From: Ctenosaura bakeri
Lineage: Eukaryota > Chordata > Lepidosauria > Squamata > Iguanidae
DNA length: 64,000 nucleotides
Direction of reading: 5' to 3'
NCBI GenBank assembly: GCA_948474755.1
Contig: CAOLHI010003119.1
Coordinates: forward strand, 124,001 to 188,000
Part shown: piece after piece, positions 26,801-62,854 of the stretch
Numbering within the stretch: position 1 is the stretch's first letter
Layout: each line of letters opens with the position of its first letter
Position numbers and translations under genes: made by a program
The notes under the pieces: generated by a model
Seen by the model: only the letters and a program-made list of their open reading frames with translations
The model's database searches: none
What the model was told of the DNA's origin: nothing

Positions 26801-29800
26801 CCACCAGTGGGAAGAAATCGAAATATCAGAAAAGTGTGAGACAAAACCGGACCCCCCAATACAAGACAATAGCTATGAAGGGGTATGAATCATGCATCCC
26901 TGCAGACTCTTTCAGATGCTGCCAGACTATAATCCTTGCAATCCCAGCCAGCACAGTTTATAGGGAGAATTAAGAGGTGATGCAGTAACAATATCTGGAA
27001 GGACACAGGAGTCCCATCTGACTTAGAGTTTGGGATCTTTCACTGGGTTTTTACTAGAGGGAGGGGGAGAGTCAGGCTCAGCCATGGCTCTCAGAGATAG
27101 GGGTCCCCACAACAGAAAGAAAAGTGCCTTAGAACCAGAAAAAACATATCAGTATAGAATGTAATACCCTTCAAAGCCACTGCGACTTAATTCTATTTAA
27201 GTATGTCTATGGCCCAGGAGAAAAATTTGACAATTGATAAGACGAGACTCAGCTGCATTCCAGCCCTGATAAATTTGGATCTGGGAACCTAGACTTCATC
27301 TGTTAACCATCAGAGGATTGTTTAATCTCAGATAAACCATCTTTGAAAATATATGGTGTGGGAGGGGATGAAGGATTTAGAAGGCTGTGGGTTTCTTGTT
27401 CAATGTGGGTAAATGAAGGATGGCATTCTGAGGTCACAGAACTAGTCTGGAAACAACCTACATAAACTTCAGCAACTTTGGAGTCCATATCTAAGATGTT
27501 CTCCTACAAGGGGAAGAGGGTCTGGGGGTTCCACCAAGGGTCAGGCAGTCTCTGCCATCAGCAGTCTGAAGAAAAATGTAGCACAGAAGAAGACACGTGG
27601 CCCAGCAAAAGCATCCACAGGCACTTACTGAGGTAGGAGGCAATCCGAGCCAGCAACAGAAGTGCTGCCGGGACTCCGAAGACGGCTCCAACCATGAATC
27701 CCACGTTGACTAAAACAGAAGAAACACATTGCTTTTCCATCAAGCTCTTTAAGGTTACTGACACAAGCCCTGAGATCCGTTAAGCAGAGATGCTAGTGGC
27801 TGAAGCTCCCAACATTACCCATGGACTATGACCTTCTTTTGAAAGAATTCTTTCTCCCCTGAGGCTTACCAGAGCCTAGCATTACTGGCTTCACTAAAAT
27901 CATTTAATTTAAAAATGCACAGAGAGTCCAAGTGTGTGTGTTATTTTAGACCATGTTACGCAATGCAAAGGCAGAAAGAAAGCTGTATCTTTCTGCCTCA
28001 CTGCTGTCAAATATGGAGCTTATACTTTCAAGGTTTATTCTTCCAGCGCCTTTATCAAACGTCACCCCATTCCATTCTCTGAGCCTTCAGCATAGGACTC
28101 CATCTTCTTCCTTGCACACCTAAACATATTCAGAGTTGAATGGAGTTTTTCCCCGTAACAGGGGCCGCTGGGGAGTGCTCCCCTCCCAGAATCCCCCCCT
28201 GCTGACCAAGGGCCCCTTCCTTTTGCCCCCTTCAGTCTCTCACCGCCAGGCTCTTCAAAGGCCAAGACCAGCGGCTTGCTTAGGCTGGCATGATCCACAT
28301 GGCACCGGTAGAGGTCCCTCTCTTTGGGGTCAATGTCGATGCCAAGCCAAGTGTGGTAGGTTCCATCTGAGTTGGGAGCAACATCCCTACGGAAAGTTTC
28401 ATGGTCCAGGACCTTCTCCCCCTTTTTCCAAGTGGCACCAATCTCCTTGGGGTAGAAGCCGTGGACCTGGCAGATGAGGGCTTCCTGGCCATCACCAATT
28501 GCCTTGCGTGTTACCTTCCCTACAGGGGGATCTGAAAGAAAACAGCAAATCAAGGATCAATGCATCTCTTAAGACCTTCCGAACAGGCAGCAGGAGGGAT
28601 GGGATGTTTGGGCAGAAGGAAGGGGCCTCCTGGGTTCAAGCATAGTCCTGCCCTTCACCCCGAAACTAGATAATCACATCTTTAGCCTACTAAAGAAGGG
28701 AAAACCCATCCCTAAGAAGAGGATTTGCTAGATTCATTCTGAACACACACATCTATGGTGTTAGGGCAGCGGTGTGCAACTACACAGGAATTGGAGCCTA
28801 ACCGGGTCCCCAACCCCACCATGAGCAGCACCTGCCTGTCAGTGGGCCAAAATTAGCCATATAGGAGCCAAAATGGTCACCACAAATGGAGCAACGTCAT
28901 TTCTGGCTAACATGTGGTTTTAAAAAGGGATATTTTCCAGATAAGGAAGAGTGTTTCTGTACTTTGGAGTCTTCTGGCATGGCTGTTGGACAAAAATAGC
29001 CTAAAAATCATCCTCCCCAAAAAATTAAAAATGGAGGGGAGGAGGTTCAAGAGGCTTCGAGGGACTGGGAGGGAGCTTCAGAAGCTGCAAAAGACGTTGG
29101 AGGTCCATCTGCAGCACATGTGGGGAAGACCTCTTTTTGTCCCACAGCTACCTAAAGACATGGGACCTCCACCTGTCCCACTTCAAGGGCACCAGACGTG
29201 GGGCGACCTCCCTTTATCTCAGCATGATGGCTCCAAAGTTATTCCTATAACTGAATAAATGCTGCCACCACAGAGATCAGGTATCTGAACCAAGCCAGTC
29301 TGTTGTTTTATTATTGTTTTTATTCTTATTATTGTAGCATTCCCAAAGGCACACGTGTACAGTTAGCCCTCCACTTTCATGAGGGTTAAAGGTGCCAGAT
29401 CCCGCAAAAATGGAAAAACCACGAATAAAAATAAAAATGGTAAAAGCTATATTTTTTTTAAATCTAAGAATACTTCTGTGGAAATCTCTGGGACCTTCAG
29501 TGCGATTCTATGTTCAACTTGTGGTGGAAGCGGGCCACAGATTCATGCCGGAAGACCCAGCAATACCTAGAGAAGTGCTCTCTCTAGGAATCTCTAGGTC
29601 TTCCAGTGGGACTCTGTGGTCCACTTCCAGCTGAAGTGGAACACAGAACTGCAGAGGATGACCTAGAGATTCCTAGAGATAACATATTTTTTTCCATGGC
29701 AAAGATATGGGGCAAATACAGTAAGATTTTAAAAAAAAATAAAAAAAAATAAAAATAACCCAGGAATAATCAAATCAGTGAATACTAAACCAGCGAAAGT

Positions 29801-32800
29801 GAAGACCCAGCTTCATATTAAAACAATGGCCCTTTCCACACGCAGGCGAAGAAACGGGGGAAACCACGCTGAAACAGAGGTTACCTTAAACCCGGTAAGT
29901 CCGTCGCCGCGTGGAGCAGAGCATTTTTGCTGCTCCACATTCGTCGGCGTCCTGCGGCATCCAAAATGGCTGCTTATGACTGGCGGAGGCTCTCCACCAA
30001 CCGGAGAAGCTTGCCAGCCAGAAAGCCCGTCCCCGGCAGATCTGCAGGCATGCCCTTGCACATGTCTGCAAATCTACACCGGGCGCTGCAACGCAGCTGC
30101 ACGCCTTGTGCCTTTTAAAAACCACTTGAAAAGTGGTTTTTAAAGAAGCACACGGCGCTGCCACTTCTGGGCGCCCTAGTGCGGATTGGGGTGTGGAATT
30201 ACACTAAAGTAATCCGTCCCAATCCATTTTATGGTGTAGACGACCTCCGTCAGAGGTCGAGCTATACCGTTTTAATACTCCAGAAGTTCAACATAGGGTT
30301 AAAGATTACTTTGCTTACAGAACTTTGTTGTTGTGTTCTGATTTATGGCGCCCTGAAGGTCAATCTATCATGGGGTTTTCTTGGCAAGATTTGTTTGGAG
30401 GAGATAGGCTGAGAGAGTGTGTCCTGCCCAATGTCACTCAGTGGGTTTCTACGGCTGAGCAGGGATTTGAATCCTGGTCTCCAGAGTCATAGTCCAGCAA
30501 TCAAATTGGGGGCTGCATCCAGACTTTGAAACTTTAAGTAAAACTATTTCTCTTCCCTCAGGCTTCTAGAAGCTGACTGTGATGGAATTGTAGTGGCATG
30601 GTGTGCTGGTTCGTTGGCTTGTTTACAGTTCTTTTAATTGAATTTCAATGGTTTTAATTTTACAAAATGTTTTAATTTTTAGTTTTTTAAAAAAATAACT
30701 TTTATATTTATTCTTTTTCTTTATGTTTCTGTATAGCTCTTAATCTGCACTATTTTTAATAAGCTGCTTTGAGCTGCTTTGTGCTGCTTTGTGAGCTGCT
30801 TTGACTCCCATGTTTGAGTAAAAGGTCAGGATATAAATGAATTAATTACACACATGTATTCGTACGTACATGCATAATACCAGCTGGGATGGAAGGAGAA
30901 TTCAAACACAGACCTGGCCCTACCTGCACTCTGCAACACTCCAGCCTACTAAAACATTTGACTGAATTTAGGGGACTGAGTTTCAAGGAGCAGGAGCAGG
31001 GAATGCATCCATGGACTGTGCTATCGCAGTTCAAGCAGAAAGGATCAACATATCTGAATGCTTCCCCCACCCAACAAAGGTATAAACCCTCTCATCCTGC
31101 TATGCTAGTTTGGTACTTGTGCTCCAGTAAAGCAACTGAATTTGCCTTTTCTCTTCATTTAGAACCACTGCATTTCTTTAAGGAAAATTGAACAGAACTC
31201 CTCTTCTCTGAGAATGGTAGCCTCTCTCTCTGGCCCCTGTTGGGCTGCTGAGTAGGTTGCTCTCAGGCAGAATATACCTGAATATTGCTGGGCTGGAGTA
31301 TAACGTTATTGCTGGTTTTTCCTATGAGCCTTTAAGTCATTTCTGACTTATGGCAGCCCTAAAGCGACCCTATCATGGGGTTTCATTGGCAAGATTTGTT
31401 CAGAGGGGTTTGCCTTTGCCCTTCTCTGAGGCTGAGAGAGCATGGCTGATGTGGATTTGAATCCTGGTCTCCAAAGTTGTAATTCAATGCTCAGTCTCTC
31501 TACACCATGCTCAGGTCCCAGACCTTTTTCTGGACACTGGACGCGTATGCCTAGTTGAGAACAAAGCCAAGGAGTGTGTGTGTGGAGGCAGAAGGAGGGA
31601 GTGGGGCCCAATGGCGACTCCTCCCTGGCAGAAGCCCTCCCTGTCTCACCTGCCCACAGCACTCACCTCTCCTCAGGAACATCTCTTTCCCATAGTCCAG
31701 GTAAATCTGCAGCCACATAATGCAGGCATCCTCCAGGTAGCCCTTCAGGTACTGGTTGTTTGCTGCATCAGCATCCCACTTCTTCTTGGTGATCTGGGCT
31801 GCCCCATCGGCTGCTGTCCAGGTGAGGGTCGTCTTGTCAAAGCTGATGTAGTCCTTCCCGTCGTAGGCAAACTGGATGTACCCTCTTTTGCTCCTGTCCT
31901 TCCTCAGCTCACAGCCCAATGCCTCCTGCAGAATGTGAAACCCTGAAAGAGACCCATCAAATGTGAGGGTTGGGGGTCATGTAAACAGAGCTGGGGGACA
32001 GCCTCTCCCTCCCACATGCCAAGCCCTACAAACCAGGTTCAAGTGGATTTTTTTTCTTATTTTATCTAAGATTGAAGGAAGAGTCAAGAGACAGAGGCCA
32101 CTCAAAAAACTTGAAACATTATTCAAGAATGAAAGCAATGAGGCTGCTTTTCATCCTGGAGAGAAGTGACTAGCGGGGTGCCACATGGTTCTGTCCTGGG
32201 CCCAGTGCTGTTCAATATTTTTATCAGCAACTTGGATGAAGGAATAGAGGGCACGCTCATCAAATCTGCAGATGACACCAAATTGAGAGGGATTGCTAAT
32301 GTGCCAGAAGACAGGATCAAAATTCAAAATGACCTGGACAGATTGGAGAGCTGGGCGAAGGCTAACAAAATGAAATTCAACAGAGAGAAGTGTAAGGTCC
32401 TACACTTAGGTAGAAAAAATGGAATATAGAAATATAGGATGGGGGACACGTGGCTGGATAGCAGTACGTGTGAAAGGGATCTAGGAGTCTTAATAGACCA
32501 CAAGCTGAACATGAGTCAGCAGTGTGATGCGGCAGCCAAGAAAGCCAATGCAATTCTCAGCTGCATCAACAGAAGCATGGTGTCTAGATAAAGGGAGGTA
32601 CTGGTACCACTCTACTCTGCTTTGGTTAGACCTCATCTTGAATACTGTGTCCAGTTCTGGGCACCCCAATTCAAGAAGGATATTGACAAGCTGGAGCAAG
32701 TCCAGAGGAGGGCGACCAAAATGGTGAGAGGCCTGGAAGCCATGCCTTATGAGGATAGACTTAGAGAGCTGGGTATGTTTAGTCTGCAGAAGAGAAGGTT

Positions 32801-34686: not shown

Positions 34687-37600
34687 TCTCTTTCCATGCA
34701 TCTCCCCAAAAGCTGAAAGATTTGCACTTAAGAAGCAATAGAACTGGATGGATGGCCACTTCTCCTTCTCCTCTGGAATGTGGGCTCCCTCCTATCTCAT
34801 AGGATGGAATTATGAGGCCTTCCACATGTTGACTGCAACTCTGGGCATTCCTTCTTAATAATAGCTTATGCACAAGGGTGGTTTTGGGGGGAAGAGTACC
34901 AAGGTCCCACTCCCAATCTTGCAGCTCTGCCAGCTGTGGGAATACCAGATGGTTTTAACTGCAGCTCCCAGCAGCCCTAGCCAGCACAATCAATGCTGAC
35001 AAAGCCTGGGAGTTGCGGTCCAGCATCTGGAGGGGAGCACAATTGTTACCCTTGTGCTCGTGTCTGCACAGAATTTAAGGGGAGACTATTTTTCCAGGAT
35101 TCTTCTGGTTTAATCAGCTTGACTGGGAAGGGTCTCTACTGTAAAAAAAAGTTCTATCTTTCTGCCTTTCTGCAGTCCCCTCTGCATTTCTTTCTCCTGG
35201 AAGACACAAACAAAGGGTAGGAATCTGCTGCTAATTGCTCACCCACCTCCACTCTGGTTGTAACGGTGCCGTGCGGTTGCCAAATTCTCTCTGAATACTC
35301 TTTCTGTGCTCTGTGTTCTCTTAGTGTTGAAGTCCCAGTGTTGAGGATCTATCTTTTCCACCTCCTTCACCCACGGGACTCGAGGCACAGCCTTCCTCGT
35401 ATTGGCATCATAGTAAATAAAGGGTAGGTCATCCACGTACCCCACGCTAAAGAACTGTGGCAGCCCTGGGCCAGCCTCTGTCACTGCCGTGAAGTAATAG
35501 CGCAGGGAGTGAGAGGAAGAGCCTGGAAAGAAAGACATTTTATATACGGTTGGGACCTGTAGCTGTAACTCTCTTTTCAAGCCTTCAAAGCCTTTCCAAG
35601 ATTCTGCCACCCTGTGGGACTCCCCATGAAAGAGGTCCAAGAAGTGAACTGGCCTGTGGAAAGAAGGATTGGAGAGGACGATGTCTATGAGCCCAAAATA
35701 TATTCCAGTTAATTAGGAGGAGCAAATTGGGGAAGCCAAAATAACAGAGAGAAGACAAGAGAAGAGATGGAATGGGGATGGTCAGAGGAGGGGGATAAGA
35801 AAGCTTACTTGGGAGCTAAGGAGAGCAGAAGGTGGAATTTTTAAAAAGGGAGGTGGGGTGAATATCTAAGGCCACCTTTCATGGTCATAAAAGGATTCCC
35901 CCAGAAAAAGATTCCTAACTGAAGAGGAAAGGAACTGGTGGGGTCCTCCACTGATATGCACTGCAGGTACACCCCATTTTCTTTATATGAAAACAAACAT
36001 TCCTGTTAGAAATATACTGTTCTACAAAATTAATTGTAGCATAAAGGACGCAAAGTAAGCCAGACCAAGCAGGTTAAATGGAAAACAATACTGGTCAAAT
36101 ATAATATCAAAATTGTAGTTTTTTCCAGGTGTCTTTATCTAGGAAAATGATACATTAAAGCACACCAACTTGTAGTTAGAAATGAAAAGAAAAAAAAATC
36201 TGGATTCTTGACTTTTCTGCTCATTTTTCTTGAAAAATTGAAAAAAAAATAGAAATTATATAGGGATTATAGAATTTTTTTTTTTTGAATGATGAAAAGT
36301 TAAGGCAGAATAGTCATATATTTATGACTATATACTTTAGAAGGTAGAGAGTTTTACGCAGAACTATGTACAGTGCTCCCTCTTTCGGCATATGTGAATC
36401 TGATGTTGCGTGAAGTGGCATGTCTGCGATCGCTGATGGACACAGTGGGCATGTTATCAACTTCATACACCGTATGTTGTGATGCAGTGTGAAAAGTACC
36501 TGCAATCAGCTTTCCAAGGTTTGTTACCGCAGCTGTGAGCCAGGAACACACCAGAGGTACAAGGATGCAGTCCCTGCCCCACTAAGCTTACAAATCATAC
36601 AAGTTGGGGGAAGAGGACTGCAAAAAAGATGATCTGGAGTCTCTTGGGGATGTGTTCGAATCTCAGTTCTGCCTCTCCCCCTGCCCCACTTTGCACACCA
36701 AGGAAACCCAAAATGCAATCCCTCTCTTAATATGGGACTGGATGGGCCTGTCGCTCTCTTCCTGCCCCCAAACACACCCTTGCCCAACACATGGGGCTCT
36801 CAAGCCTGAACTCTCCCCTTCCGCACTGCAGTGTCATAGTGCTGTTATTCCACTTTCAACCTCCTGTGGAGTTCTGGAGTTTGAGGCCAAAGAACTCTCT
36901 GGCTGAGAAGTCAAAGCCCCTCCCTAAACTGCAAACCCCAGGATTCCATAGGAGGTTGAAAGTGGAATCATAGCACTATAAAAGTGTAGTGTGGAAATGG
37001 TGGAAGTCAAGAGCCCTGGTGGTGCAGTGGTTAAATGCCGGTACTGCAAGCCACAAGGTTGTGAGTTCGATCCTGCCGGGCTCTAAGGTTGACTCAGCAT
37101 TAAGGTTTACCCACCCTTCCGCAGGTCGGTAAAATGAGTACCCAGCTTGTTGGGGGCATGTATAGAAATACATGCTATTTGTAAGTTGTTCGCCGCCTCA
37201 ATCCACGTGGAGAGGCGGGATATAAATAAATAAAAAGAGGAGGAAACCGAGACTGCCACGCTTTGAACAGATCATGGGAAGGTGGGACAAGCTAGAAGAA
37301 CAGGTTGCTTACCTGTAACTGTGGTTCTTCGAGTGGTCATCTGTGCCATCATACACTAGGAGCTTTAGCGCCTGCGCGGTAGCGTTCGGAAACTTCTAGA
37401 GCTTGTTCGCTTGGCGGGAACCCCTCCCCCACGCCGGTACTGCGCATGCTCCTCCCGCCGAGCAACGGTCTCTCCTCAGTTCTGTCGTCCGCCGTAGAAC
37501 CTACAGGGACCTGAGAAAGAGGGGAGGAAGGGCGGGTGTGTATGATGGCACAGATGACCACTCGAAGAACCACAGTTACAGGTAAGCAACCTGTTCTTCT

Positions 37601-40600
37601 TCTTTGTGGTCTCTGTGCCTTCATACACTAGGAGACTGTGTAGCTTACCGGTCGGACGGCGGGTCAGGTCCTACAGCACGGAAGCCAACACCTCACGTCC
37701 AAACCGGGCATCTCTGCGCAACCGGCAGTCGAGCCTGTAGTGGCGCACGAAGGTCGATGGTTGGGACCAGGTCGCCACACGGCAGAGTTCATGCAGGTCA
37801 ACTCCTCGCAGGAGGGCCGCAGAAGTAGCCACCGCTCTGGTGGAGTGGGCTCGAAGCAGGACTGGCGGAGGCTTCCTCGCGAGCTCATACGCCAGTTGAA
37901 TAGTCCTCACCACCCATTTGGAGAAGCGCTGGGTGGACACATTGAGGCCCTTCCGACGTCGCCCATAGCAAACGAAGAGATGCGGCGTCTGTCGGAAGGA
38001 AGCAGTCCTGTCCATGTAGAAGGCCACGGCCCGACGCACGTCCAGGGAGTGGAGAGACCGCTCCAACGGTGTCGTCGGGTTCGGGAAGAAGGCAGGCAGG
38101 ATGATGTCCTGGTTGAGATGGAAACTGGACACCACCTTAGGCAGGAACGAGATGTCAGGTCTCAGGACCACCTTGTCTCTGTGGAAGACCGTGAAGGGCT
38201 CATCGGATCGAACAGCTGTGATCTCACCCGCTCGCCTCGCTGAGGTCACCGCTACCAAGAAGGCAGTTTTCATGGTGAGAAGCCTATCATCCGAGGTCGC
38301 CATCGGCTCGAAGGGCGGCTTTGTCAGCTGCGAGAGCACCAGCGAGAGGGACCACGGCGGTAGCGGCGGCGATACCGGCGGGTAGAGATGATGAAGTCCT
38401 TTCAGGAACCGCTTAACGGTATCGTTCCTGAAGAAGGCCGAGGCAGCCGATCGTGGCGGTTGGTATGCCACGATCGCGGAAAGATACACCTTCAGGGATG
38501 GAAACGCCAGCCCCTGTTGCCGGAGGTGCAGAAGGAAATGCAGGACGGTAGAGAGCCCCGCGGGCGATACCGGCTCACTCCTCTCGTTAGCGAAGGTCAG
38601 GAAGCGTCGCCACTTGTATTGATAGTTGCGACGGGTGGATTCCTTCCTGGCCGCGACGAGGACGGTACCGAGCACGGGATCGTCTAGTGCGATATCCTCC
38701 AGGCATGGAGGGCCAGGCGTGGCAGGTCCGGATGGAGGACTCGGCCGCCGGAGTGGGAGAGCAGGTCCGGTGTCGGTGGCAACCGGAGCAGGTCGTCTCG
38801 TGCGGCTTGTAGCAGGGGTGCGAACCAATGTTGCCTCGGCCAGTACAGGGCTACCAGGATCGCGTCGGCTCGGTCGGCGAGGATCTTCGATATCGTCCGG
38901 CCGAGCAGCGGGAACGGCGGGAACGCGTAGAGGAGTTCCCCGGTCCACGGAAACTGGAAAGCGTCCCCGATGGAGGCACGATCGTGGCCTGCTCTGGAAC
39001 AGAATCGGCGACACTTCGCGTTTTCCCTGGTTGCGAAGAGGTCGATCGATGGTTCGCCCCAGCGGTCCCGAATCAGTCTGAACGCCTCTCTGGAGAGAGA
39101 CCATTCGTGATGGGATGAGGTGTCCCTGCTGAGGGCGTCTGCCGTGGTGTTCTCCTGCCCGGCCAGGTGAACTGCCACGGGATGCGTATGCAGGCGAATG
39201 CACCATTTCCACAAGTCGAGTGCAATGTTGAGCAGGGTTGTGGAGTGAGTCCCTCCTTGTCTGTTGATGTAACAGACGGCGGTGGTATTGTCCGTCAGAA
39301 CCAGGACCGTCCGCCCCGCTACGACGTGGCGGAACGCCCATAGCGCTTTCAAGACGGCGAGTAGCTCCAGCGCGTTGATATGGAGAGCGGTCTCGTCGTC
39401 GGTCCATCTGTCGCGGACTCTGAGATCGCCGCAGTGGGCACCCCATCCATACAGGGAGGCGTCGGTCGTTACCGTCACCTTCGGTGTCGGCTGTTGGAAA
39501 GGCATCCCTGACATGAGATTGCGTCGCGACTGCCACCATCGGAGGGATGAGCGGACGTCTCCCGGCAGCTGCAGTCGGAGTGTCTGTTCGTCTCGCAGGG
39601 GGTCGAATATGCGGACGAACCAGTGTTGAAGAGGTCTCGCTCTCAGCCTGGCGAGATATGTCACAGCGGTCGTCGCAGCCATGTAGCCCAAGAGCTGCTG
39701 GACGCTTCTCGCAGATAATGTCGGGGCCGTACGCGCGTGAGCGGCGGCCCGGATCAGGGTTTGGGCTCGAGACTCTGGTAGGTACGCCCTGGCGGAGGTC
39801 GAGTCGAGCGTCGCCCCGATGAAGTCCAAGATCCTCGCCGGCTCGAGGTGGGACTTCTTCGGATTCACCCGTAGACCAAGGCGGGTCAGGAGTGACAACA
39901 TCATGTGGACGTCGTGGTAAAGTCTCTGTTTGCAGGACGCCACCAACAGCCAATCGTCGAGGTAAGGGAAGACAGAAGCACCCTTCGTCCGCAGGAAGGA
40001 TACCACCGGGGCCATGCACTTGGTGAAGACCCTTGGGGCAGTCGAGAGTCCGAACGGCAGCACCTTGTACTGGTAACAGGTGTCGTCGACTGCGAAGCGG
40101 AGGTACCGTCTGTGCTGCGGGCGAATGGCGATATGGAAGTATGCGTCTCGGAGATCGATGGAGGCGAACCAGTCCCCTCGATGTAGGAAGGGCAGGATCG
40201 ACGGTATCATGACCATCTTGAACCTCTTGGGGCGGATGTAGTAGTTCACCCCTCTGAGGTCTAGGATCGGCCGGAGGGTACCGTCGGCTTTCGGTACCGT
40301 GAAGTACCTGGAGAAGAAGCCGGTGGTCTTGGCCTCTTGCGGGAGCTGCTCGATCGCCCCTTTCTGGAGGAGGGATTGGATCTCTTCCAGGAGGGCCGGA
40401 CTCGACGGCGTGGAATAGTAAACGCCTCGAGGAGGAATATCGAGAAACTCGATGGCGTAGCCAAGACGGACGATGGAAAGCACCCAAGAGTCCGTAGTGA
40501 CACACTGCCACTCCGCGAGATGTCGAGCAAGAGTCGGTCGGTCTCCGAGCGCTGATGGTAGGCTGAAGAGTGGGTATTGGTAGGTCCTGCCAGGCACGTC

Positions 40601-43600
40601 AAAATCGAGACTTTGTCTCGGAGGAGGACTTCTTGGACGAAGCCGGGCGTCGCCTAATCGTGCCTCTGGCCGATGAGCCGGAGGACGGTCTCGACTGTCC
40701 AGACTGGGCCGAACGCTGGAACGACGAGGTGGAAGATCGTCGCCAGGATGGGCGGAAGGTGGAGGTCCTGCGGGCTTGCGTGGCCGGCTGTAGCCTGATC
40801 TTCTTGGCGGTCAGCCTCGCCTTAACGAGATTGTCCAAAGCTTCGTCTGTGGACGAATTGAATAGGCCCTCACCGTCGAAGGGGAGATCTTCAATCCTCC
40901 TTCTGGTGTCCTCCTGGATGTCGGCCGGCCGCAGCCAAGCATGGCGGCGCAGGCCGATGGATCCCGCCATGACCCGGGAGGCAATCTCCACTGCGTGCCT
41001 GGAGGAGGCCATCTGCTGCCGAGCGATGGAGATGGCCTCGTTGAAGATCACGGAGGAGGCTTGGCGGATGTCCTCCGGTACCGCCTCCATCGCCGGTTGC
41101 AGGCGATCGAGCACCTTTTTCAGGTATGCCGCGAGGCAAGCCTGAGTGTTGGACAGCCTGATCTGCAAGGAGGCAGCTGAATAGAACCTTCTTGCATAGG
41201 CGTCCAACTTCCTGCCCTCTTTGTCCGGCGGGGTGGTGTGTTGCCTGCCGGAGCCTTTCGTCTGTGCCGACTCGACCACCACAGAGTTCGGTGCAGGGTG
41301 ATTAAAGAGATAACCGGCGTTATCCTTCTGCACCCTGTAGAGGTGTTCCAACCGCTGCGGTATCGGCTGAGCCGAGGCCGGCCTATCCCAGGCGGCCTTC
41401 ACCAGTCTGGATACCCGGGGCAGGAGAGGCAGCGGGGCCGTGGCAGGTCGCTTCTCCTCGAAGACGGAGAAGGCTGGATCGTCGTCCTCCGGCTCCGCAT
41501 CGGCGATCTTAAGGCCGAGGGTAGTAGCCATGCAGAGCAGCATCGCAGAGAACTGGTGGACGTCCTCTGGAGCAGAATCTGGGATCGGGTCCCCGAATCC
41601 CAGCGGAGGAGACTCCTGGGAGGCCGCCTCAGACACCTCTGATTCCGCACTCGAGTCGTACGACTCTGAGGTCGGTGAGTCCTCTCGCCGCTCGCTTTCC
41701 GGCTCCTTCGCAGTCGCCACAGGTGTTGCCTTCCTAGGCTTCTCTGCAGCCGGGGCGGTGGTAGTAGCAGCGTCCCGCTTGGACTGGCTGACTACTGACT
41801 TCACCTTCTTAGTGGTGACAGGGGTAGTCTGGCAGGCTGACGTCGTCGTAGCCCGCTCAGTCACCACCGACTCCGTAGGGCGCGTCGCCATTGCCGTGAC
41901 CCTAGGAGGTGGCGATATCGCCCGATACCGAGGTGAAGGCTCCCTCGCCCTATGATATCGAGGAGAAGGAGAGCGGCTGAAGGAGCGGCGGTCCGACGGA
42001 GATCGGCTTCGGCGTCGACGGTACCGAGCCTCGTCCCCTCTAGGCGAGCGCGATTCGCGCTGTCGACGAGGTGACCGGGACCTCCGGAAGGTCTCCCAGC
42101 GACTCGGGCCACGATGGTACCGATCCTGGTACGATGGCGAATGTGACCGATAAGAGGCCGGGCGCTCTCTCCATTCAGATTCCCTCGCGTACCTGGCCAC
42201 GTAGGACACCGAGGTGTATCTGGAGGCAGACGAGCGAGGTTGTTCCTCTCTTGTCTCCCTAGGAGGCGGCGAGGCCACCGGACGCTCGGAAGAGCGGGAC
42301 CGGGACCGGAAGGAGGTCGAACGCCGCTCCGGAGAAGCAGAGGGCTCTCTCTGCTGCAGGTCGGCCGACCTGCGACGGCTAGGAGGGCGGTGGCGCTCCT
42401 CCACCAGGGTTGGAGGGTCTGCCACAGGCGAGTCCGGGCACTGTTGGGGAACGTCCTCGATCTCATCATCCGAGAGATCGACGGACTCGCCTCGCCCTTT
42501 GGAAGGCTGCTGAGTAGGAGGAGGAGTAGGAGGTTGAACGTCCCCAGCCGGGGAGCGCTTCTTCTCCTTCTTCTTCTTCTTCTTCTCCTTCTCCTTGCCC
42601 TTGCCTCCGTCCGGAGCAGGGCGCTTTTTAGCAGGCGTCTCCGTCAGGGGAGCCTCAGCCTTCCTCGCCGTCGAGGATCCTTTCGCTGACTTGGCAGCCG
42701 CCGACAGCTTCGGGATCCTCGGTAACGCCGAGATCGGCGTTTTCGCCGGTACCGAGCCCGATACCGACGAGGTGGATGGAACGGCAGCCGCCGATACCGT
42801 CGATGGCGTGGTCGTCTTCTTGTCGGCCATCTTGGAAGTGGAGGTCTCGTCTATCGCCCGCAGAGACTGTTCCCAACAATAAGACTTAAGTCTCGCGGAC
42901 CGGTTGCGGAGAGTTTGGGGAGTAAAATCCCGGCAAATTGGGCAAGTCCGGATGTTGTGGGACTCACCCAAACAGAAGAGACACTCCTTGTGGCTGTCGT
43001 TGAGGGCAACCTTGCGCCCGCAGGACACGCACTTCTTGAAGAGCGCGGACATAAGACGAAGAACGCCAAACTGCGAAAATCCGAAAAGACCAAAGCCGAA
43101 GGGGGAGTCCGAAAGAGAGGTCAGAGACAGTCCAAAATCCGTAAAACCGTGAAAACAGCAAGCCAAGCACAAAAGTGAGAGGAACAAACTAAAGAACCTT
43201 CCGTACGCGACGGCGGACGAGAAAGAACTGAGGAGAGACCGTTGCTCGGCGGGAGGAGCATGCGCAGTACCGGCGTGGGGGAGGGGTTCCCGCCAAGCGA
43301 ACAAGCTCTAGAAGTTTCCGAACGCTACCGCACAGGCGCTAAAGCTCCTAGTGTATGAAGGCACAGAGACCACGAAGAAGAAAAAGATGATCATGTTTAG
43401 CAAGGTAGTAGGAAAAGAGCAAGACTGGATCACACGTGGAAGGACTCGACCAAGGAAATCAAGGCTGCCCTGACTTTGCAAGACCTGAGCAGAACTTCTA
43501 ATGTCAATCAAGGAAATCAAGGCTGCCCTGACTTTGCAAGACCTGAGCAGAACTTCTGATGTTAGGGGACATTCCCGCATTACACTCTCATAGGGTGATT

Positions 43601-44076
43601 ATTCCACTTTCAACATCCTATGGAATCCTGGGATTTGCAGATTGGAGAGGGGCTTGCCTCCCCAAACTGCAAATCCCAGGGTTCCATAGGATGTTGAAAG
43701 TGGAATAATTGTGTTCTATAAGAGTGTAGTGTGGAGGGTGACCCGGAGGTCTCTAATCTTATAGGCTTGGCATAAATCAAAAGTCGACTTGATGCCCAAG
43801 AAGTACCCCCTCTCAGGGCCCACCGAGGCTAGAGCCCCCCCGAGCCAAGGGGGGGTCACTGCCCCCAAAACTGGTTTGGGGTCTCTGCCACCCCAAAAAA
43901 AGTTTGGCCCCGGGGCAGACCCCCCAAAGTGCCACCACCCTGGGAGAAGGAGACAGGAGGAGAAATCAAATGAATGACTCACCATCCCTTGGCAGTCTAG
44001 CAGCTCTCGACGATGGCAGAGCCAGTCCTGTGGTCCCCAGAAGGGACGCCGCCCCCAAGAGCCAAAGGGACCCCAT
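20832..44076 (-). CDS. MHC class I heavy chain, gene A (gene span)
   Basis: Cell-surface antigen-presenting heavy chain that pairs with beta2-microglobulin. Seven exons on the - strand (leader 43983-44076, alpha1 35247-35522, alpha2 31667-31942, alpha3 28244-28531, transmembrane 27629-27709, tail 25040-25078, last 20832-20836 plus 3' UTR) all splice in phase 1 with AG/GT borders, the class I norm. The alpha1 domain keeps Tyr7; the residue at the position of human Tyr84 is Arg, as in non-mammalian classical class I. The alpha2 domain keeps the Thr143/Lys146/Trp147 cluster (ITKKKW), Tyr159, Tyr171 and the Cys pair. The alpha3 domain keeps both Cys. No stop or frameshift is visible. Human Tyr59 corresponds to His (PQHWD). 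Intron 1 is 8.5 kb because it holds a DIRS element. Classical or non-classical status cannot be decided from sequence alone. Confidence 0.93.
22261..23151 (-). mobile_element. Solo LTR downstream of class I gene A
   Basis: 891 bp in reverse orientation (TGTTACCTTG to GTAGTAACA). The right flank is CTAT and the left flank TTAT. The paralogous sequence near gene B (about 51403-51425) reads GAGGCCCTATCCTATG without the LTR, so the target duplication was CTAT. Confidence 0.92.
23606..23940 (-). mobile_element. CR1 LINE 3' fragment, gene A block only
   Basis: On the - strand encodes [33 protein letters not shown] and ends ATCATAGAGTTGGAAGAGACC. The gene B block lacks it (52285-52300). Confidence 0.87.
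24168..24409. mobile_element. SPIN-like non-autonomous hAT transposon
   Basis: 242 bp with terminal inverted CAGTGGTTCTCAACCT / AGGTTGAGAACCATTG and a perfect 8-bp duplication GTCTAGAA on both sides (24160-24167, 24410-24417). The ends match what I know of SPIN hAT elements (AATGCC..GACCCTTTAAT-type end). An internal palindrome TATTTCCAATGGTCTTAGGC lies at 24235. The gene B paralogue (near 52668) is an empty site. Confidence 0.85.
25040..25078 (-). CDS. MHC class I gene A, cytoplasmic-tail exon
   Basis: 39 bp between CTCAACAG and GTGAGT, phase 1. Reads (K)[12 protein letters not shown], basic next to the membrane with a tail tyrosine. Paralogues lie at 53810-53845 and 63609-63647. Confidence 0.75.
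25490..25945. repeat. Minisatellite-like tandem repeat, period about 110-130 bp
   Basis: The GGGAGG..GCAGCCC block recurs at 25601, 25712 and 25842, each with CCTTTGCC/TTTTGCCC and GCACATG motifs. The gene B block has about one unit (54240-54420). Confidence 0.7.
26222..26645. mobile_element. Possible GC-rich non-autonomous DNA transposon
   Basis: Starts GGGCCCTTTTCGCATGG and ends GTGTGGAAAGGGCC, short imperfect inverted ends like those of the foldback family, with CpG-rich content unlike its flanks. I found no clear target duplication. The gene B block has nothing comparable. Confidence 0.4.
27629..27709 (-). CDS. MHC class I gene A, transmembrane exon
   Basis: 81 bp, phase 1 at both ends. 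Encodes a hydrophobic segment beginning [20 protein letters not shown]; splicing to the next exon puts KKRR straight after it, a typical stop-transfer signal. Confidence 0.9.
28244..28531 (-). CDS. MHC class I gene A, alpha3 immunoglobulin-like exon
   Basis: 288 bp, phase 1 to phase 1, open. Encodes [50 protein letters not shown] and [11 protein letters not shown], a C1-set domain with both disulphide Cys. Confidence 0.95.
28545..31319. other. Gene A intron 3, remainder
   Basis: No exon. Contains a GC-rich patch at 29826-30180 starting CCCTTTCCACACGCAGG, possibly another transposon, AT-rich sequence at 30600-30860 resembling an L2-like 3' end, and the SINE at 30323. Confidence 0.45.
30323..30507 (-). 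mobile_element. tRNA-derived SINE, type 1
   Basis: Reverse copy with GATTTATGGCGCCCTGAAGG and GGGGTTTTCTTGGCAAGATT; partial head. Confidence 0.75.
31320..31519 (-). mobile_element. tRNA-derived SINE, type 1, shared by genes A and B
   Basis: Reverse copy ending CTACACCATGCTCAGGTCCC about 150 bp 3' of alpha2. Gene B has the same insertion at 57142-57355, so it predates the duplication. Confidence 0.8.
31667..31942 (-). CDS. MHC class I gene A, alpha2 exon
   Basis: 276 bp, phase 1 to phase 1. Encodes [45 protein letters not shown] and YLDYGKEM; Cys101 and Cys164 (human numbering) are present. Confidence 0.95.
32165..33155 (+). mobile_element. CR1 LINE, 5'-truncated, in gene A intron 3-side of alpha2
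   Basis: Encodes the end of reverse transcriptase ([41 protein letters not shown]) and the whole C-terminal tail to HLSGVL, with stops between frames, then the short CR1 3' UTR ending TTCTATGATTCTATGATT. It lies between alpha2 and alpha1 of gene A (intron 2), opposite in sense. The gene B block has no CR1 at the matching position (57880-57930). Confidence 0.9.
34105..34284. mobile_element. Foldback element in gene A intron 2
   Basis: GGTCATTTCCGCAC to GTGCGGAAATGGCC, centre GGGGCCGGCCAGCCCC. Confidence 0.88.
34653..34683 (+). repeat. (TC)n microsatellite in gene A intron 2
   Basis: Uninterrupted CT dinucleotide run of about 15 units. Confidence 0.95.
35247..35522 (-). CDS. MHC class I gene A, alpha1 exon
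   Basis: 276 bp, phase 1 to phase 1. Encodes [29 protein letters not shown], the helix around PQHWDFNT and the terminal RYNQSGG with the N-glycosylation motif NQS. Confidence 0.95.
35523..36814. other. Gene A intron 1, part 5' of repeats
   Basis: 35523-36070 parallels 60228-60760 of gene B. The remainder up to 36814 is AT-rich, then resembles 62170-62450 of gene B. No exon. Confidence 0.6.
36815..37000. mobile_element. Foldback element in gene A intron 1
   Basis: Variant core; the left tip is shortened (CCCTTCCGCAC); the right tip is GTGTGGAAATGG. Confidence 0.82.
37011..37237 (+). mobile_element. tRNA-derived SINE, type 2
   Basis: Head AGCCCTGGTGGTGCAGTGGT with GTTCGATCCTG (B box), body TAAGTTGTTCGCCGCCTCAA, tail GATATAAATAAATAAA. 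Ends about 60 bp left of the DIRS. Confidence 0.85.
37325..37483 (+). repeat. DIRS left inverted terminal repeat
   Basis: Inverted copy of 43223-43378 with few mismatches, including TACACTAGGAGCTTTAGCGC and GCATGCTCCTCCCGCCGAGC. The outer edge extends a further 28 bp (37297-37324) that the right repeat lacks. Confidence 0.9.
37538..37632. repeat. DIRS internal complementary region
   Basis: Positions 37538-37600 are the reverse complement of the left end (37297-37356). Positions 37595-37632 are the reverse complement of the right end (about 43342-43380), with one mismatch. The unit therefore equals the complement of the joined ends, the template used to close the DIRS circle. Confidence 0.9.
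37671..38705 (-). CDS. DIRS tyrosine recombinase
   Basis: About 344 residues from the LEDIALDD region to the stop at 37671. An N-terminal core-binding part ([19 protein letters not shown]) precedes the catalytic domain, which has the first Arg in TSARRAGEI, the HxxR box in HSTRAVAT and the nucleophile Tyr in FVRHYRLD, the tyrosine-recombinase set. The same frame stays open upstream to 40511 across the RT gene, so the true start is uncertain; 38705 marks where recognisable recombinase sequence begins, overlapping the end of the RT frame by about 20 bp. Confidence 0.88.
   Translation of the reverse strand, partial: CLEDIALDDPVLGTVLVAARKESTRRNYQYKWRRFLTFANERSEPVSPAGLSTVLHFLLHLRQQGLAFPSLKVYLSAIVAYQPPRSAASAFFRNDTVKRFLKGLHHLYPPVSPPLPPWSLSLVLSQLTKPPFEPMATSDDRLLTMKTAFLVAVTSARRAGEITAVRSDEPFTVFHRDKVVLRPDISFLPKVVSSFHLNQDIILPAFFPNPTTPLERSLHSLDVRRAVAFYMDRTASFRQTPHLFVCYGRRRKGLNVSTQRFSKWVVRTIQLAYELARKPPPVLLRAHSTRAVATSAALLRGVDLHELCRVATWSQPSTFVRHYRLDCRLRRDARFGREVLASVL
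38684..40597 (-). CDS. DIRS polyprotein: reverse transcriptase, RNase H and methylase-like domain
   Basis: 637 residues, open. The reverse transcriptase covers about 50-330 with SIDLRDAY (Asp148) and the catalytic box YLDD (212-215). RNase H covers about 375-490 with [12 protein letters not shown] (Asp379), the helix ELLAVLKAL (Glu411), LTDNTTAV (Asp436) and ADALSR (Asp487). Residues about 515-610, with [10 protein letters not shown] and AFPPFPLL, correspond to the Dam-like methylase domain characteristic of DIRS1-type elements. Spacing to Gag is one base; the recombinase core begins in another frame at the 3' end. All catalytic residues seen suggest a recently active copy. Confidence 0.92.
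   Translation of the reverse strand: MPGRTYQYPLFSLPSALGDRPTLARHLAEWQCVTTDSWVLSIVRLGYAIEFLDIPPRGVYYSTPSSPALLEEIQSLLQKGAIEQLPQEAKTTGFFSRYFTVPKADGTLRPILDLRGVNYYIRPKRFKMVMIPSILPFLHRGDWFASIDLRDAYFHIAIRPQHRRYLRFAVDDTCYQYKVLPFGLSTAPRVFTKCMAPVVSFLRTKGASVFPYLDDWLLVASCKQRLYHDVHMMLSLLTRLGLRVNPKKSHLEPARILDFIGATLDSTSARAYLPESRAQTLIRAAAHARTAPTLSARSVQQLLGYMAATTAVTYLARLRARPLQHWFVRIFDPLRDEQTLRLQLPGDVRSSLRWWQSRRNLMSGMPFQQPTPKVTVTTDASLYGWGAHCGDLRVRDRWTDDETALHINALELLAVLKALWAFRHVVAGRTVLVLTDNTTAVCYINRQGGTHSTTLLNIALDLWKWCIRLHTHPVAVHLAGQENTTADALSRDTSSHHEWSLSREAFRLIRDRWGEPSIDLFATRENAKCRRFCSRAGHDRASIGDAFQFPWTGELLYAFPPFPLLGRTISKILADRADAILVALYWPRQHWFAPLLQAARDDLLRLPPTPDLLSHSGGRVLHPDLPRLALHAWRISH
40599..43052 (-). CDS. DIRS Gag-like protein
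   Basis: 817 residues from the ATG at 43052; the frame is open further upstream into the terminal repeat. Residues 1-60 have paired Cys motifs ([24 protein letters not shown]) resembling a zinc-binding module. The middle is Lys-rich then very Ser/Arg-rich (SR/RS repeats, about residues 220-400), and the C-terminal part is a folded-looking region. No enzymatic motif is seen. Position 5' of the RT frame fits the structural protein of DIRS elements. It ends just upstream of the RT frame, whose first ATG is at 40597, and this suggests stop/restart or coupled translation. Confidence 0.8.
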   Translation of the reverse strand: MSALFKKCVSCGRKVALNDSHKECLFCLGESHNIRTCPICRDFTPQTLRNRSARLKSYCWEQSLRAIDETSTSKMADKKTTTPSTVSAAAVPSTSSVSGSVPAKTPISALPRIPKLSAAAKSAKGSSTARKAEAPLTETPAKKRPAPDGGKGKEKEKKKKKKEKKRSPAGDVQPPTPPPTQQPSKGRGESVDLSDDEIEDVPQQCPDSPVADPPTLVEERHRPPSRRRSADLQQREPSASPERRSTSFRSRSRSSERPVASPPPRETREEQPRSSASRYTSVSYVARYARESEWRERPASYRSHSPSYQDRYHRGPSRWETFRRSRSPRRQRESRSPRGDEARYRRRRSRSPSDRRSFSRSPSPRYHRAREPSPRYRAISPPPRVTAMATRPTESVVTERATTTSACQTTPVTTKKVKSVVSQSKRDAATTTAPAAEKPRKATPVATAKEPESERREDSPTSESYDSSAESEVSEAASQESPPLGFGDPIPDSAPEDVHQFSAMLLCMATTLGLKIADAEPEDDDPAFSVFEEKRPATAPLPLLPRVSRLVKAAWDRPASAQPIPQRLEHLYRVQKDNAGYLFNHPAPNSVVVESAQTKGSGRQHTTPPDKEGRKLDAYARRFYSAASLQIRLSNTQACLAAYLKKVLDRLQPAMEAVPEDIRQASSVIFNEAISIARQQMASSRHAVEIASRVMAGSIGLRRHAWLRPADIQEDTRRRIEDLPFDGEGLFNSSTDEALDNLVKARLTAKKIRLQPATQARRTSTFRPSWRRSSTSSFQRSAQSGQSRPSSGSSARGTIRRRPASSKKSSSETKSRF
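43223..43378 (-). repeat. DIRS right inverted terminal repeat
   Basis: Inverted copy of 37325-37483; forms the 5' end of the element in its coding orientation. Confidence 0.9.
43565..43738. mobile_element. Foldback element, 185 bp right of the DIRS
   Basis: Diverged tips (GGGGACATTCCCGCAT / GTGTAGTGTGGAGG) with a typical TTCAACATCCTATGGAATCC middle on both arms. Confidence 0.8.
43983..44076 (-). CDS. MHC class I gene A, leader exon
   Basis: ATG at 44076-44074; encodes [20 protein letters not shown] and 11 further residues, a hydrophobic signal peptide, and ends in phase 1 before GTGAGT. This start is chosen over an out-of-frame upstream ATG because it gives a signal peptide paralogous to gene B. 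Confidence 0.88.
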
Positions 44077-44198
44077 GCCGCCCCCATAACTCGAACCCCG
44101 ACCTCGCATGAACTTCGACACCACCTGAGCGCGGAACTAAGGATGACTCCTGCCTAGGTGAACCGGGGGAAGAGCGGGGATTGGCCGAAGGAGGAATA

Positions 44199-44248
44199 AT
44201 TGACCAATAGGAAACTTGTATTCCGATTTTGTCAGCAGTCGCTGGGTA
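44199..44248 (-). promoter_or_regulatory. Gene A X-box-like and inverted CCAAT (Y box) module
   Basis: On the - strand CCCAGCGACTGCTGACA (X1/X2-like, 44230-44248) is followed 20-25 bp later by ATTGGTCAAT (44199-44208). Order and spacing match the SXY module that recruits RFX, CREB/ATF, NF-Y and the transactivator NLRC5. Gene B has the same layout. Confidence 0.6.
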
Positions 44249-44270
44249 GAGAAGGCAACCTGCAAGGGGT

Positions 44271-44286
44271 GGGAAACGAAAGTTTC
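44271..44286 (-). promoter_or_regulatory. Gene A interferon-stimulated response element
   Basis: GGGAAACGAAAGTTTC about 195 bp upstream of the leader ATG matches the ISRE core (GAAA-NN-GAAA type) bound by IRF factors in class I promoters. Confidence 0.65.
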
Positions 44287-44333
44287 TTTTCAAGAGTTTC
44301 CTTCTTAAACAGATTGCAGGGCAGGGCGACTTT

Positions 44334-44479
44334 GGCCATTTCCGCACTACACTGTTATAGCGCTATTATTCCGCTTGCAACACCCTATGGAATCTTGGGG
44401 TTTGCAGTTTCGGGAGGGGCCGGCCGAAACTGCAAACTCCAGGATTAAAGCGCTATAATAGTCCAGTGCGGAAATGGCC
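44334..44479. mobile_element. Foldback element upstream of gene A
   Basis: GGCCATTTCCGCAC to GTGCGGAAATGGCC with a deletion in the right arm. It lies about 50 bp upstream of the gene A ISRE. Confidence 0.85.
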
Positions 44480-44518
44480 GAGGCTGGTGGAGACTTAGGC
44501 CATTTCAGCATTACCCTC

Positions 44519-44719
44519 ATCATTTCCGCACTACGCTGTTATAGTGCTATTATTCCGCTTGCAACATCCTATGGAATCTTGGGGTTTGCAGTTTCGGGAG
44601 GGGCCTTTAGAATTCTCAGCCAGAGAGTTCTTTGGTCTGAATAAACTACAAACCCCAGAATTCCAGAGGATGTTGAAAGTGGAATAATCACGCTATAACA
44701 GTGTAGTGTGGAAATGGCC
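44519..44719. mobile_element. Foldback element, variant core
   Basis: Second of three nearly adjacent copies; an additional orphan tip GGCCATTTCAGCATTAC is at 44498-44514. Confidence 0.83.
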
Positions 44720-44881
44720 ACAGTTATAGCGCTATTACTCCATTTTCAGCATCCTATGGAATTCTAGGGTTTGTAGTTTGCAGAGGCCAAAGGTTCCCCT
44801 CCTTAAACAGCAAACCCTAGGATTCCACAGGATGTTGAAAGTGGAATAATAGCACTATAACAGGGTAGTGCAGCAATGGCC
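44720..44881. mobile_element. Foldback element lacking its left tip
   Basis: Begins inside the arm (CAGTTATAGCGC) directly abutting the previous copy and ends GTAGTGCAGCAATGGCC. Confidence 0.8.
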
Positions 44882-45145
44882 GAGGCATTATGGTCTGTTT
44901 ATGCAGCACCTGGCATTCAAGTTTCATAAATGTACCAGATCCCATCTGATCGTAGAAGCTAAGCAGGCTCAGACCTGGTTAGTACTTGGATGGGAGACCA
45001 CCAAGTAACACCAAATGTGCTGTAGGCTCTATTTCGGAGTAGGAAAGCACCAAACCATCTCTAAATACTACATCTTTTGTCTAAGAAAACCCAATGAAAT
45101 TCATAGGGTCGCCATAACTCCACAGCCAACTTGAACTGGCACAGA
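44882..45145 (+). mobile_element. 5S rRNA-derived SINE
   Basis: Same head (GAGGCATTATGGTCTG..) and 5S-like part (about 44935-45010) as 9070-9260, plus a tail with CATAGGGTCGCCATAACTC. Confidence 0.8.
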
Positions 45146-45479
45146 CACGCAGATATTATAGTACTCAGAGTGATCTTTCTCTGTATTGTTGAAGGACAAA
45201 TTTTTCTCTTTTACCTTCTAGAACTAATGCCACATGGAAAAAATATATCAACATAATGTTCTTGCCTGTCAGTAGGAACAAATCTATTGTTTGTTTGTAA
45301 TCATATTATTGTTACTATACGCTGTAATACTGTTATCGATGTTCTCATTTATCCTATGAATGAAGCAGAGTCTTCTTCGTGTTACTTTTGATTCTTGCCT
45401 TTGGTTTCTCACATTGAGGCTGCAGCAACGTCATAATGATCTTTCTTAGACCTTTTCTTTCCTCTTCCTCTGCTAAGAC

Positions 45480-45900
45480 AGGCGTTGATCATTTCCTGCC
45501 TTGGTTACTGTAATCTTCTTTTGACTAGGCTTCCATTCTCTCCCCTTAGTCCTCTGGTTTCCAATTAACAATTCTGCTGCTAAGATGATCTTTTTGGCCT
45601 GTCATTTTGATCATGTTAGCCTACATCTGATACCTCCTCAATGGTTACCCATTGCTTCTAAGGCCATTTCCACACTACACTGTTACAGTGCTATTATTCC
45701 ACTTTCAACATCCTATGGTCCTCCCCATCATAACTGTGAACCCCAGGATTCCATAGGATGTTGGAATAATAGCACTATAACAGTGTAGTGTGGAAAGGCC
45801 CTAAGATTCAGTTCAAGCTTCTTGTTTTTTGCTCAAAGCCCTAGAGGACCTTCTTCCCCATCTTTCAGCCCTTATTTCTTTTTACCAGTCTGGTCTAGAT
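45480..45900 (+). mobile_element. L2-like LINE fragment
   Basis: Diverged reading of the ISCLDYCNLLLTRL type and LVFCSKPLEDLLPHL, split by the foldback element 45662-45800. Confidence 0.55.
45662..45800. mobile_element. Foldback element nested in an L2-like LINE fragment
   Basis: GGCCATTTCCACAC to GTGTGGAAAGGCC, with a deleted centre. LINE-like sequence resumes at 45803. Confidence 0.82.
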
Positions 45901-45919
45901 CTGCCTTCTAGGAACTCTG

Positions 45920-46220
45920 TAGGTCAACTGAAATCAATGGATGTAGGTTAGTCCTAACGTCTCCCATTGACATCAATGGGACTACTGGCCACAAAGGGGA
46001 ACTTGTCATTTCCTGGAAGCCTCCAGAAGCAGAAGAAATACTTTTTTGAAGAGGTTACAGGATTCTCCTTGCACTATTTAACATTTTAAAACCTTTTTCC
46101 TGACTGGGGGGACACTTCCCAGGGTTTCAGGCCAGAGTCCACCCCTGCCCTAACTGAGGATGGAAACCAAGAGCTTTTTGGATGCAAAGCAAGTACCTTC
46201 CCACTGAATCACAAACAGCC
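45920..46220. repeat. Outer part of the duplicated block, copy B
   Basis: Paralogue of 18700-19290; shorter by about 250 bp. Confidence 0.65.
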
Positions 46221-61445: not shown

Positions 61446-62854
61446 AAATAAGGATAATTCTGCCCATTTTTTTATTTGCCAGTTGAGGTTCATTCCCCCC
61501 CCCACAAAATTAGGACTCTTTGGAGAGGGCACAGTGCACAGATGTTGCTTGCTCCACCTGAGTCACTGAGCTGTACCTCATCACATTTTTGTTGTTGTTG
61601 TTGATTGATCTACCCTCTCGTGTAGGTTAGATAGAGATGGTAAGATACAACAGACTAGCAAATGAATAGCATGGCATAACCCTAGTATCTGACTCAGACC
61701 CGGGGGAGTATAATATTCAATATCAAGTTATATTTGGCCAGAGGTTCATGGGCAGGAAACGTAGACACACCGGTCAGGGACCAGACAAAAGGTGTGACCA
61801 GGCTAGACCTAGGCTTTTTTATTAAAATGTTTTAAGAAAATTTTGAAATTGGATTTTAAAAATATGATGTATTCATTTTTAAATGACTGGGTGACTGTGG
61901 AGCTCTGTGCCTCCCAGAGATATACTGAATCTAGCCGTCCATTTCCAGCCTATGAAGCTGTTTTAGCTGGAGGAGAAAACGGGCAAGATTAACACTTAAT
62001 AAAGAGAAGAATATGATGTGTTTAGGATTAACTAGAAAACCTTAGGAATACTTCCGCAAGGTGAAGATCCAGCAACCCATGAGAGGCCTACTGTGTTATC
62101 AGCGCCCTACAACCATGTTGAGACACCACTGTCGAGACGTCCCCTCCACTTCTGGAGTTTGTCGCTGCAGCTGCGAGATAAGAAAAGAAGCAGCAAAACA
62201 AGGAGGCAGTTCCTGCCCTGCAGGGCTTCCAAAACGTACAAGTCGGGCAAACTGGACTGCAAAAACCCCCAAAACGATCTGGCTTCTCTTGGGAGGTGTG
62301 TGTATGTGGATCCCAGTTCTGCCTCTCCCCCTGCCCCACTTCCCACACCAAGGAAACCCAAAACACAAACTCCTCCCTCTCCTAGTAGGGGACTGGATGC
62401 GACCCCCGCTCTGTCCTCCCGCCCCCAAACCCACCATCGCCCTACACTCCCCAAGAGCCAAGAGGACTAAATCGAGACTGTCGCACTTTGGGCAAATTAC
62501 AAGACGACAGGACTCTCTTGGAAAGAAAATCACGTTTGGCAAGGCAGAGGGAAAGCAGGAAAACCGCATCGCAGGTGGACGGACCCACTCCAGGAAGCCA
62601 AGGCTGCCCTGACTTTGCAAGACCTGAGCTGATCCCGATGACTTCTCGTTTTATAGGGTTGCCATAAATTGAAGTCCACGTGATGGCAGTGAACGACAAC
62701 AACATCGCCCTAGAAGTGCCCCCTCGAGCCAAAGGGGGGGTCTCTGTCCTTAAAGCTGGTGGGGTGAGCTTGGCCCCCCGGGGCAGACACCCCCCACCCC
62801 AGGTGCCTCCCTCTTGGTAGAAAGACAGGGGGAGAAAGGAAATCAGCCACTCAC

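What the first reader, a model, noticed from the sequence alone, without database searches (positions are those of the whole stretch)
37297..43380. Complete-looking DIRS retroelement inside intron 1 of an MHC class I gene
Gag-like, RT/RNase H/methylase and tyrosine-recombinase frames are all open with their catalytic residues, and both terminal repeats are present. Few vertebrate genomes show intact DIRS copies, and one in an antigen-presentation gene could alter splicing or expression. Sense orientation means its splice and polyadenylation signals face the host transcript.
Basis: partly seen in the sequence, partly recalled or inferred. Interest (0 to 1): 0.82.

Follow-up and report, generated by a model that had tools for sequence, protein, structure and literature searches.

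The report
Intact DIRS retroelement in MHC-I intron
A young, apparently complete copy of a known type of jumping gene (a DIRS retrotransposon) sits in the first intron of what looks like a reptile immune gene; the element is of an ordinary kind, but it may carry splice signals that could disturb the immune gene, which has not been tested.

Summary
[quoted passage not shown] It lies in sense in intron 1 (8,460 nt) of an MHC class I gene whose leader and alpha1-3 exons read open. A tandem paralogue in the window shows the unoccupied site, with no target-site duplication beyond an ambiguous 4 nt. The copy looks young: 1 mismatch in 101 terminus/ICR positions; CpG o/e 0.99 against 0.28 outside. 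Rarity was overstated: a published survey counts 775 well-conserved copies in Anolis carolinensis. Four poly(A)-type hexamers searched are absent from the sense strand; strong predicted splice sites bound a 198-nt right-ITR segment that would add an in-frame stop, which is unproven. The recombinase frame is Gag's own frame after one TGA and has no stop across the RT overlap (reached by 0 of 2000 synonymous shuffles), suggesting translation from Gag. Copy number, polymorphism and expression were not tested: the genome search did not complete (5 tries). New member of a known kind; modest interest.

The parts
37294..43382 (-). whole DIRS1-like element, about 6,085 nt; exact ends ambiguous within a TTCT present at each end
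   Evidence: terminus/ICR alignment, unoccupied site in paralogue, length
43221..43382 (-). left terminus with left ITR
   Evidence: inverted repeat I1, 98% over 147 nt; alignment
40599..43052 (-). Gag ORF, 817 aa from ATG, stop TGA
   Evidence: sub-threshold LAP2alpha Pfam hit; 40% over 231 aa to P0010 (Varanus) and 45% over 196 aa to P0012 (Pogona)
38684..40810 (-). RT / RNase H / methyltransferase frame (+1 relative to Gag by coordinates), first ATG only at 40216
37671..40598 (-). tyrosine recombinase frame, same frame as Gag after one TGA, open across the whole RT overlap; first ATG at 39539
37671..38684 (-). tyrosine recombinase domain, R151 / H280xxR283 / Y316 (numbering of the 337-aa piece)
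37538..37634 (-). internal complementary region (circle junction), complementary to both element ends
37294..37486 (-). right ITR plus right extension
37313..37510 (-). predicted cryptic exon (198 nt, mostly right ITR); in-frame stop if joined to the leader exon
   Evidence: matrix scores; prediction only
43983..44076 (-). leader exon of host MHC class I gene A
35247..35522 (-). alpha1 exon of gene A (276 nt)
31667..31942 (-). alpha2 exon of gene A (276 nt)
   Evidence: MHC_I E=1.9e-29; joined reading open
28244..28531 (-). alpha3 exon of gene A (3' end less certain)
   Evidence: C1-set E=1.4e-12
62480..62660 (-). unoccupied homologous site in intron 1 of paralogous MHC class I gene B

Best explanation
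A recently inserted, apparently coding-competent DIRS1-like tyrosine-recombinase retrotransposon in intron 1 of a reptile MHC class I gene. Its RNA would be reverse-transcribed, the ends completed from the internal complementary region to give a circle, and the circle recombined by the element's tyrosine recombinase into a short pyrimidine-rich match (TTCT-like), leaving no target-site duplication. Shown here: anatomy, open frames, conserved catalytic positions, an unoccupied site in a paralogue, a join clean to within a few bases. Inferred from the known family: the circle intermediate and the recombinase step. Inferred from stop-codon avoidance: the recombinase frame is translated from upstream, most simply by reading past the single Gag TGA. 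On the host gene the likeliest effect is small (a lengthened, CpG-dense intron), with a minority chance of right-ITR exon inclusion.
For: Frames and domains; relatives, best 54% for RT and 60% for YR, the latter in Sceloporus undulatus; conserved columns; ITR/ICR layout like that tabulated for AcDIRS1/AcDIRS2 of Anolis carolinensis (5938/5997 bp, conserved ITR 140/136, ICR 40-58/39-60; PMC3266345, passages); unoccupied site in gene B; youth: 1 of 101 terminus/ICR mismatches, CpG o/e 0.99 against 0.28, no disabling change in 5,373 coding nt, which under neutral decay bounds divergence to about 0.005 substitutions per site at 95% (assumed indel rate 10% of substitutions, 85% of them disabling).
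Against: No other copy was found in the window and the genome could not be searched, so recent activity of the family is not shown. The RT frame has no ATG before 40216 and the YR frame none before 39539, so expression is by an unproven route. A Gag search of the protein collection scored 7,980 candidates and found none at E<=0.001, although pairwise comparison with two reptile relatives did match. The paralogue is diverged at the site: the alignment there has gaps of 6, 1 and 2 nt, so a small loss, or a duplication of up to the 4 ambiguous nt, is not excluded.
Confidence: 0.93

Rival explanations
1. The insertion alters the MHC class I gene: the right-ITR segment 37313-37510 is spliced in between leader and alpha1, adding a stop, so part or all of the transcripts are null. 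(This and the next two concern the effect on the host, not the identity of the element.)
For: The best-scoring acceptor and donor of the scanned stretch 35400-44100 flank this segment. It is the only acceptor/donor pair 50-300 nt apart in 64 kb, both strands, at thresholds 12.9/11.0, one of 4 at 11/10 and one of 7 at 10/9. Its scores, 12.9/11.1, exceed those of gene A's own alpha1 exon, 11.7/8.9, and match gene B's alpha1, 12.6/11.5. Joined to the leader it reads 11 codons and then a stop.
Against: They are poor at finding true exons: of 5 MHC exons scored at both ends (A alpha1, alpha2, alpha3; B alpha1, alpha2) only 1 passes 10/9. No enhancer model and no RNA evidence. The donor lies in a short inverted repeat next to the crossover and may be recombinase sequence only.
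Confidence: 0.15
2. The element silences the gene through DNA methylation spreading from a 6-kb CpG-dense block that begins 694 nt downstream of the start codon.
For: CpG o/e 0.79-1.07 in the 1-kb bins of 37-43 kb; 0.57-0.59 in 43-45 kb; 0.15-0.37 in the other bins between 33 and 47 kb.
Against: No methylation data; undecayed CpGs may equally mean little germline methylation or mere youth.
Confidence: 0.15
3. A passenger with no effect on the host gene.
For: Intronic; none of four poly(A)-type hexamers on the sense strand; squamate MHC regions are rich in repeats and have comparatively long introns (PMC9679377, section 19 read; passages).
Against: Sense orientation and strong predicted splice sites.
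Confidence: 0.65
4. Assembly artefact or misjoined haplotypes.
For: MHC is hard to assemble (PMC13398492, passages).
Against: Recombinase-type joins at both ends and a matching unoccupied paralogous site.
Confidence: 0.03

Closest known systems
AcDIRS1 / AcDIRS2 of Anolis carolinensis (DIRS1-like superfamily)
   Same: Length near 6 kb, conserved ITR near 140 nt, ICR of about 40 plus 60 nt, pyrimidine start trinucleotide, long ORF overlap in AcDIRS2 (PMC3266345, passages)
DIRS-type proteins in other squamates (Sceloporus, Pogona, Varanus, Anolis sagrei)
   Same: RT/RH and YR domains align
   Different: 40-61% identity in the aligned ones; several carry names of host genes in their source annotation
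LAP2alpha domain of TMPO and ZNF451
   Same: Gag C-terminal region matches the Pfam LAP2alpha model below its cut-off; PMC4495291 (passages) derives that domain from ORF1 of DIRS1-like elements
   Different: Here part of a mobile element, not exapted
MHC class I antigen, PDB 7cpo (host gene)
   Same: best solved match of gene A alpha2, E=1.4e-34
   Different: The species is not shown by the call; recalled as green anole

Membership tests
DIRS1-like retrotransposon | Gag, RT-RH-MT and YR coding frames | tested here: met
   MT rests on alignment to relatives and a sub-threshold Dam hit
DIRS1-like retrotransposon | inverted terminal repeats | tested here: met
   147 nt, 98%
DIRS1-like retrotransposon | internal complementary region matching both ends, with a right extension | tested here: met
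   63/63 right, 37/38 left
DIRS1-like retrotransposon | no target-site duplication | tested here: met
   unoccupied site in paralogue B; 4 nt (TTCT) are shared by both ends and the circle junction, so a duplication of up to 4 nt is not strictly excluded
DIRS1-like retrotransposon | circular intermediate and YR-dependent integration | not testable with these tools
   needs experiment
PAT-like | split direct repeats instead of ITRs | tested here: not met
   ends are inverted
Ngaro / Viper | no methyltransferase domain, usually no ORF overlap | tested here: not met
   MT stretch aligns with relatives; long overlap present
LTR retrotransposon | direct LTRs, DDE integrase, TSD | tested here: not met
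   no long direct terminal repeats, no DDE-integrase family among the hits listed, no TSD beyond the ambiguous 4 nt
MHC class I gene (host) | leader, alpha1, alpha2, alpha3 (C1-set) and TM exons open on one strand | tested here: met
   leader-alpha1-alpha2 joined reading open; alpha3 C1-set; TM only read by eye, no Pfam hit

The most novel reading that the evidence does not exclude
In this DIRS family Gag and tyrosine recombinase form one reading frame divided by a single TGA, read through to make a Gag-recombinase fusion, while RT is reached by a +1 shift; the whole RT gene has been kept free of stops in the other frame for that purpose, including the 353 codons before that frame's first ATG.
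Probability: 0.3. Interest if true: 0.5.

Novelty: new member of a known kind. Interest (0 to 1): 0.35.

Why it matters
A young, intact-looking DIRS copy with an unoccupied paralogous site is a good substrate for studying how these elements express overlapping frames and integrate. Its position in sense near the promoter of an antigen-presentation gene makes presence/absence and allele-specific expression directly testable.

Tried and rejected
Other copies in the window: none found by blastn (E<=0.01) or by tblastn with RT, YR and Gag (E<=0.1), 37201-43450 masked. Viral contigs with the RT alignment: 15 pattern matches, none confirmed. Gag homologue search: none at E<=0.001 among 7,980 candidates scored, a capped set. 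Rfam gathering thresholds over 35000-46500: 0 matches. Poly(A)-signal idea rejected for the four hexamers searched. Gag/RT overlap openness is uninformative: 4525 of 5000 shuffles also have no stop. One calibration value printed (alpha1 donor of gene A, -11.8) came from a wrong index; one search gives 8.9. Paper searches: no title or abstract start in the listings reports a DIRS in an MHC intron; the main text of PMC9679377 holds 0 occurrences of DIRS.

Full report
Observation. Three long frames lie on the minus strand between 43.3 and 37.7 kb. From its ATG the Gag ORF is 817 codons (43052-40599). The RT frame is open from 40810 to 38684 and the recombinase frame from 40598 to 37671. Pfam finds RT, RNase H and a recombinase N-terminal domain above curated cut-offs, and LAP2alpha (Gag) and Dam (MT) below them. 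Inverted ends of 147 nt are 98% complementary.

Relatives. The RT search scored a capped 7,984 candidates and found 1,963 hits, 120 listed, best 54% identity; 11 of the 120 were aligned. The YR search gave 121 hits, 120 listed, best 60% in Sceloporus undulatus; 16 of the 120 were aligned. The positions taken as catalytic are conserved; YR R283 has one exception among 17 rows (P0126), and one RT relative (P0006) differs at the first Asp of the YxDD box, while the window copy keeps them all. The Gag search gave nothing, but pairwise comparison gives 40% over 231 aa to a Varanus protein and 45% over 196 aa to a Pogona protein. The best-named relatives are squamates and turtles, so the host is most likely a squamate; the species is not established.

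Ends and insertion. The ICR matches the right end 63 of 63. The alignment to the left end has 2 mismatches in 41; one lies outside the part shared with the circle, leaving 1 in 38, at a CpG of the left end. Both ends carry TTCT, within which the crossover would lie. In the tandem paralogue, gene B, the homologous intron 1 sequence runs through the site without the element. Near the site that alignment has gaps of 6, 1 and 2 nt, and the joined string still held a few bases of the element's end, so the join is clean only to within a few bases; no duplication beyond the ambiguous 4 nt is seen. Matched blocks of the two genes range from about 69% to 89% identity around the site, so this shows order of events, not a close date.

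Age. CpG o/e is 0.99 in the element and 0.28 in the rest of the window. Enumerating single substitutions over 5,373 coding nt, with an assumed indel rate, intact frames imply fewer than about 0.005 substitutions per site at 95%. Years would need a mutation rate not established here.

Host gene. Gene A: leader 44076-43983, alpha1 35522-35247, alpha2 31942-31667, alpha3 from 28531 to about 28244, and a membrane stretch near 27.7 kb read by eye. Leader, alpha1 and alpha2 join into one open reading. Intron 1 is 8,460 nt, of which about 6,085 are the element; gene B's intron 1 is 2,627 nt. The element starts 694 nt after the start codon. Gene B has a reading-frame break in alpha3, and its alpha3 stretch has no Pfam hit at E<=0.001.

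Effect on the host. AATAAA, ATTAAA, AGTAAA and TATAAA are absent from the sense strand. The highest-scoring donor and acceptor of 35400-44100 bound a 198-nt segment made mostly of the right ITR. With thresholds set afterwards to its own scores it is the only such pair in 64 kb on both strands; at 11/10 it is one of four, at 10/9 one of seven. Control: of 5 MHC exons scored at both ends only gene B alpha1 passes 10/9, so the matrices, which are recalled approximations, find true exons poorly. Inclusion would add 198 nt with a stop after 11 codons. This is a prediction, not a finding.

Frame organisation. By coordinates the recombinase frame is Gag's own frame, after one TGA, and RT is in +1. 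Over the RT ORF the recombinase frame has 0 stops; 2000 synonymous shuffles average 12.5 (sd 3.0) and none reaches 0, while the third frame has 16 against a mean of 17.4. Before the frame's first ATG (40597-39540) it has 0 against 6.4, reached by 3 of 5000 shuffles; after it 0 against 6.1, reached by 8 of 5000; the third frame shows no avoidance in either part. Selection for openness upstream of any ATG suggests translation from Gag, by readthrough; splicing or non-ATG starts remain possible, and a single copy was tested. Long overlap as such is known: half of 28 annotated elements in PMC3266345 (passages), AcDIRS2 included.

Papers. PMC3266345, PMC13398492 and PMC4495291: passages only; PMC9679377: passages and section 19; others: search listings only. 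PMC13398492 (passages) reports DIRS more than twofold enriched in structural variants, and MHC as a variant hotspot, in the brown treesnake, which makes polymorphism here plausible.

Verdict. A real, young, complete-looking DIRS1-like element in an MHC class I intron; ordinary in kind, with two testable predictions.

Noticed in passing
54950-62950: A second, tandem MHC class I gene (gene B) on the minus strand, 78-82% identical to gene A in four blocks that hold alpha1, alpha2, alpha3 and membrane exons, with a frame break in alpha3; pseudogene or assembly error.
   Followed up: partly
43446-43561: 58-bp tandem duplication just upstream of the element in gene A, copies 95% alike; one copy in gene B.
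   Followed up: partly
20768-22260 and 49918-51409: 1.5-kb repeat pair, 88% identical; identity not determined, may belong to the duplicated MHC block.
   Followed up: no
37297-37315: Short inverted repeat ACAGGT-N5-ACCTGT beside the crossover at the right end; may be a recombinase site and coincides with the predicted splice donor (read by eye).
   Followed up: no
36816-37002, 43570-43738, 44329-44880 and other places: Many copies of a roughly 85-180 bp inverted-repeat (MITE-like) family across the window, some about 90% alike.
   Followed up: no
35247-35522 and 31667-31942: Gene A alpha2 keeps TKKKW and late tyrosines typical of classical peptide-binding class I (motif recalled); alpha1 has PQHW where gene B has PQYW.
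   Followed up: partly
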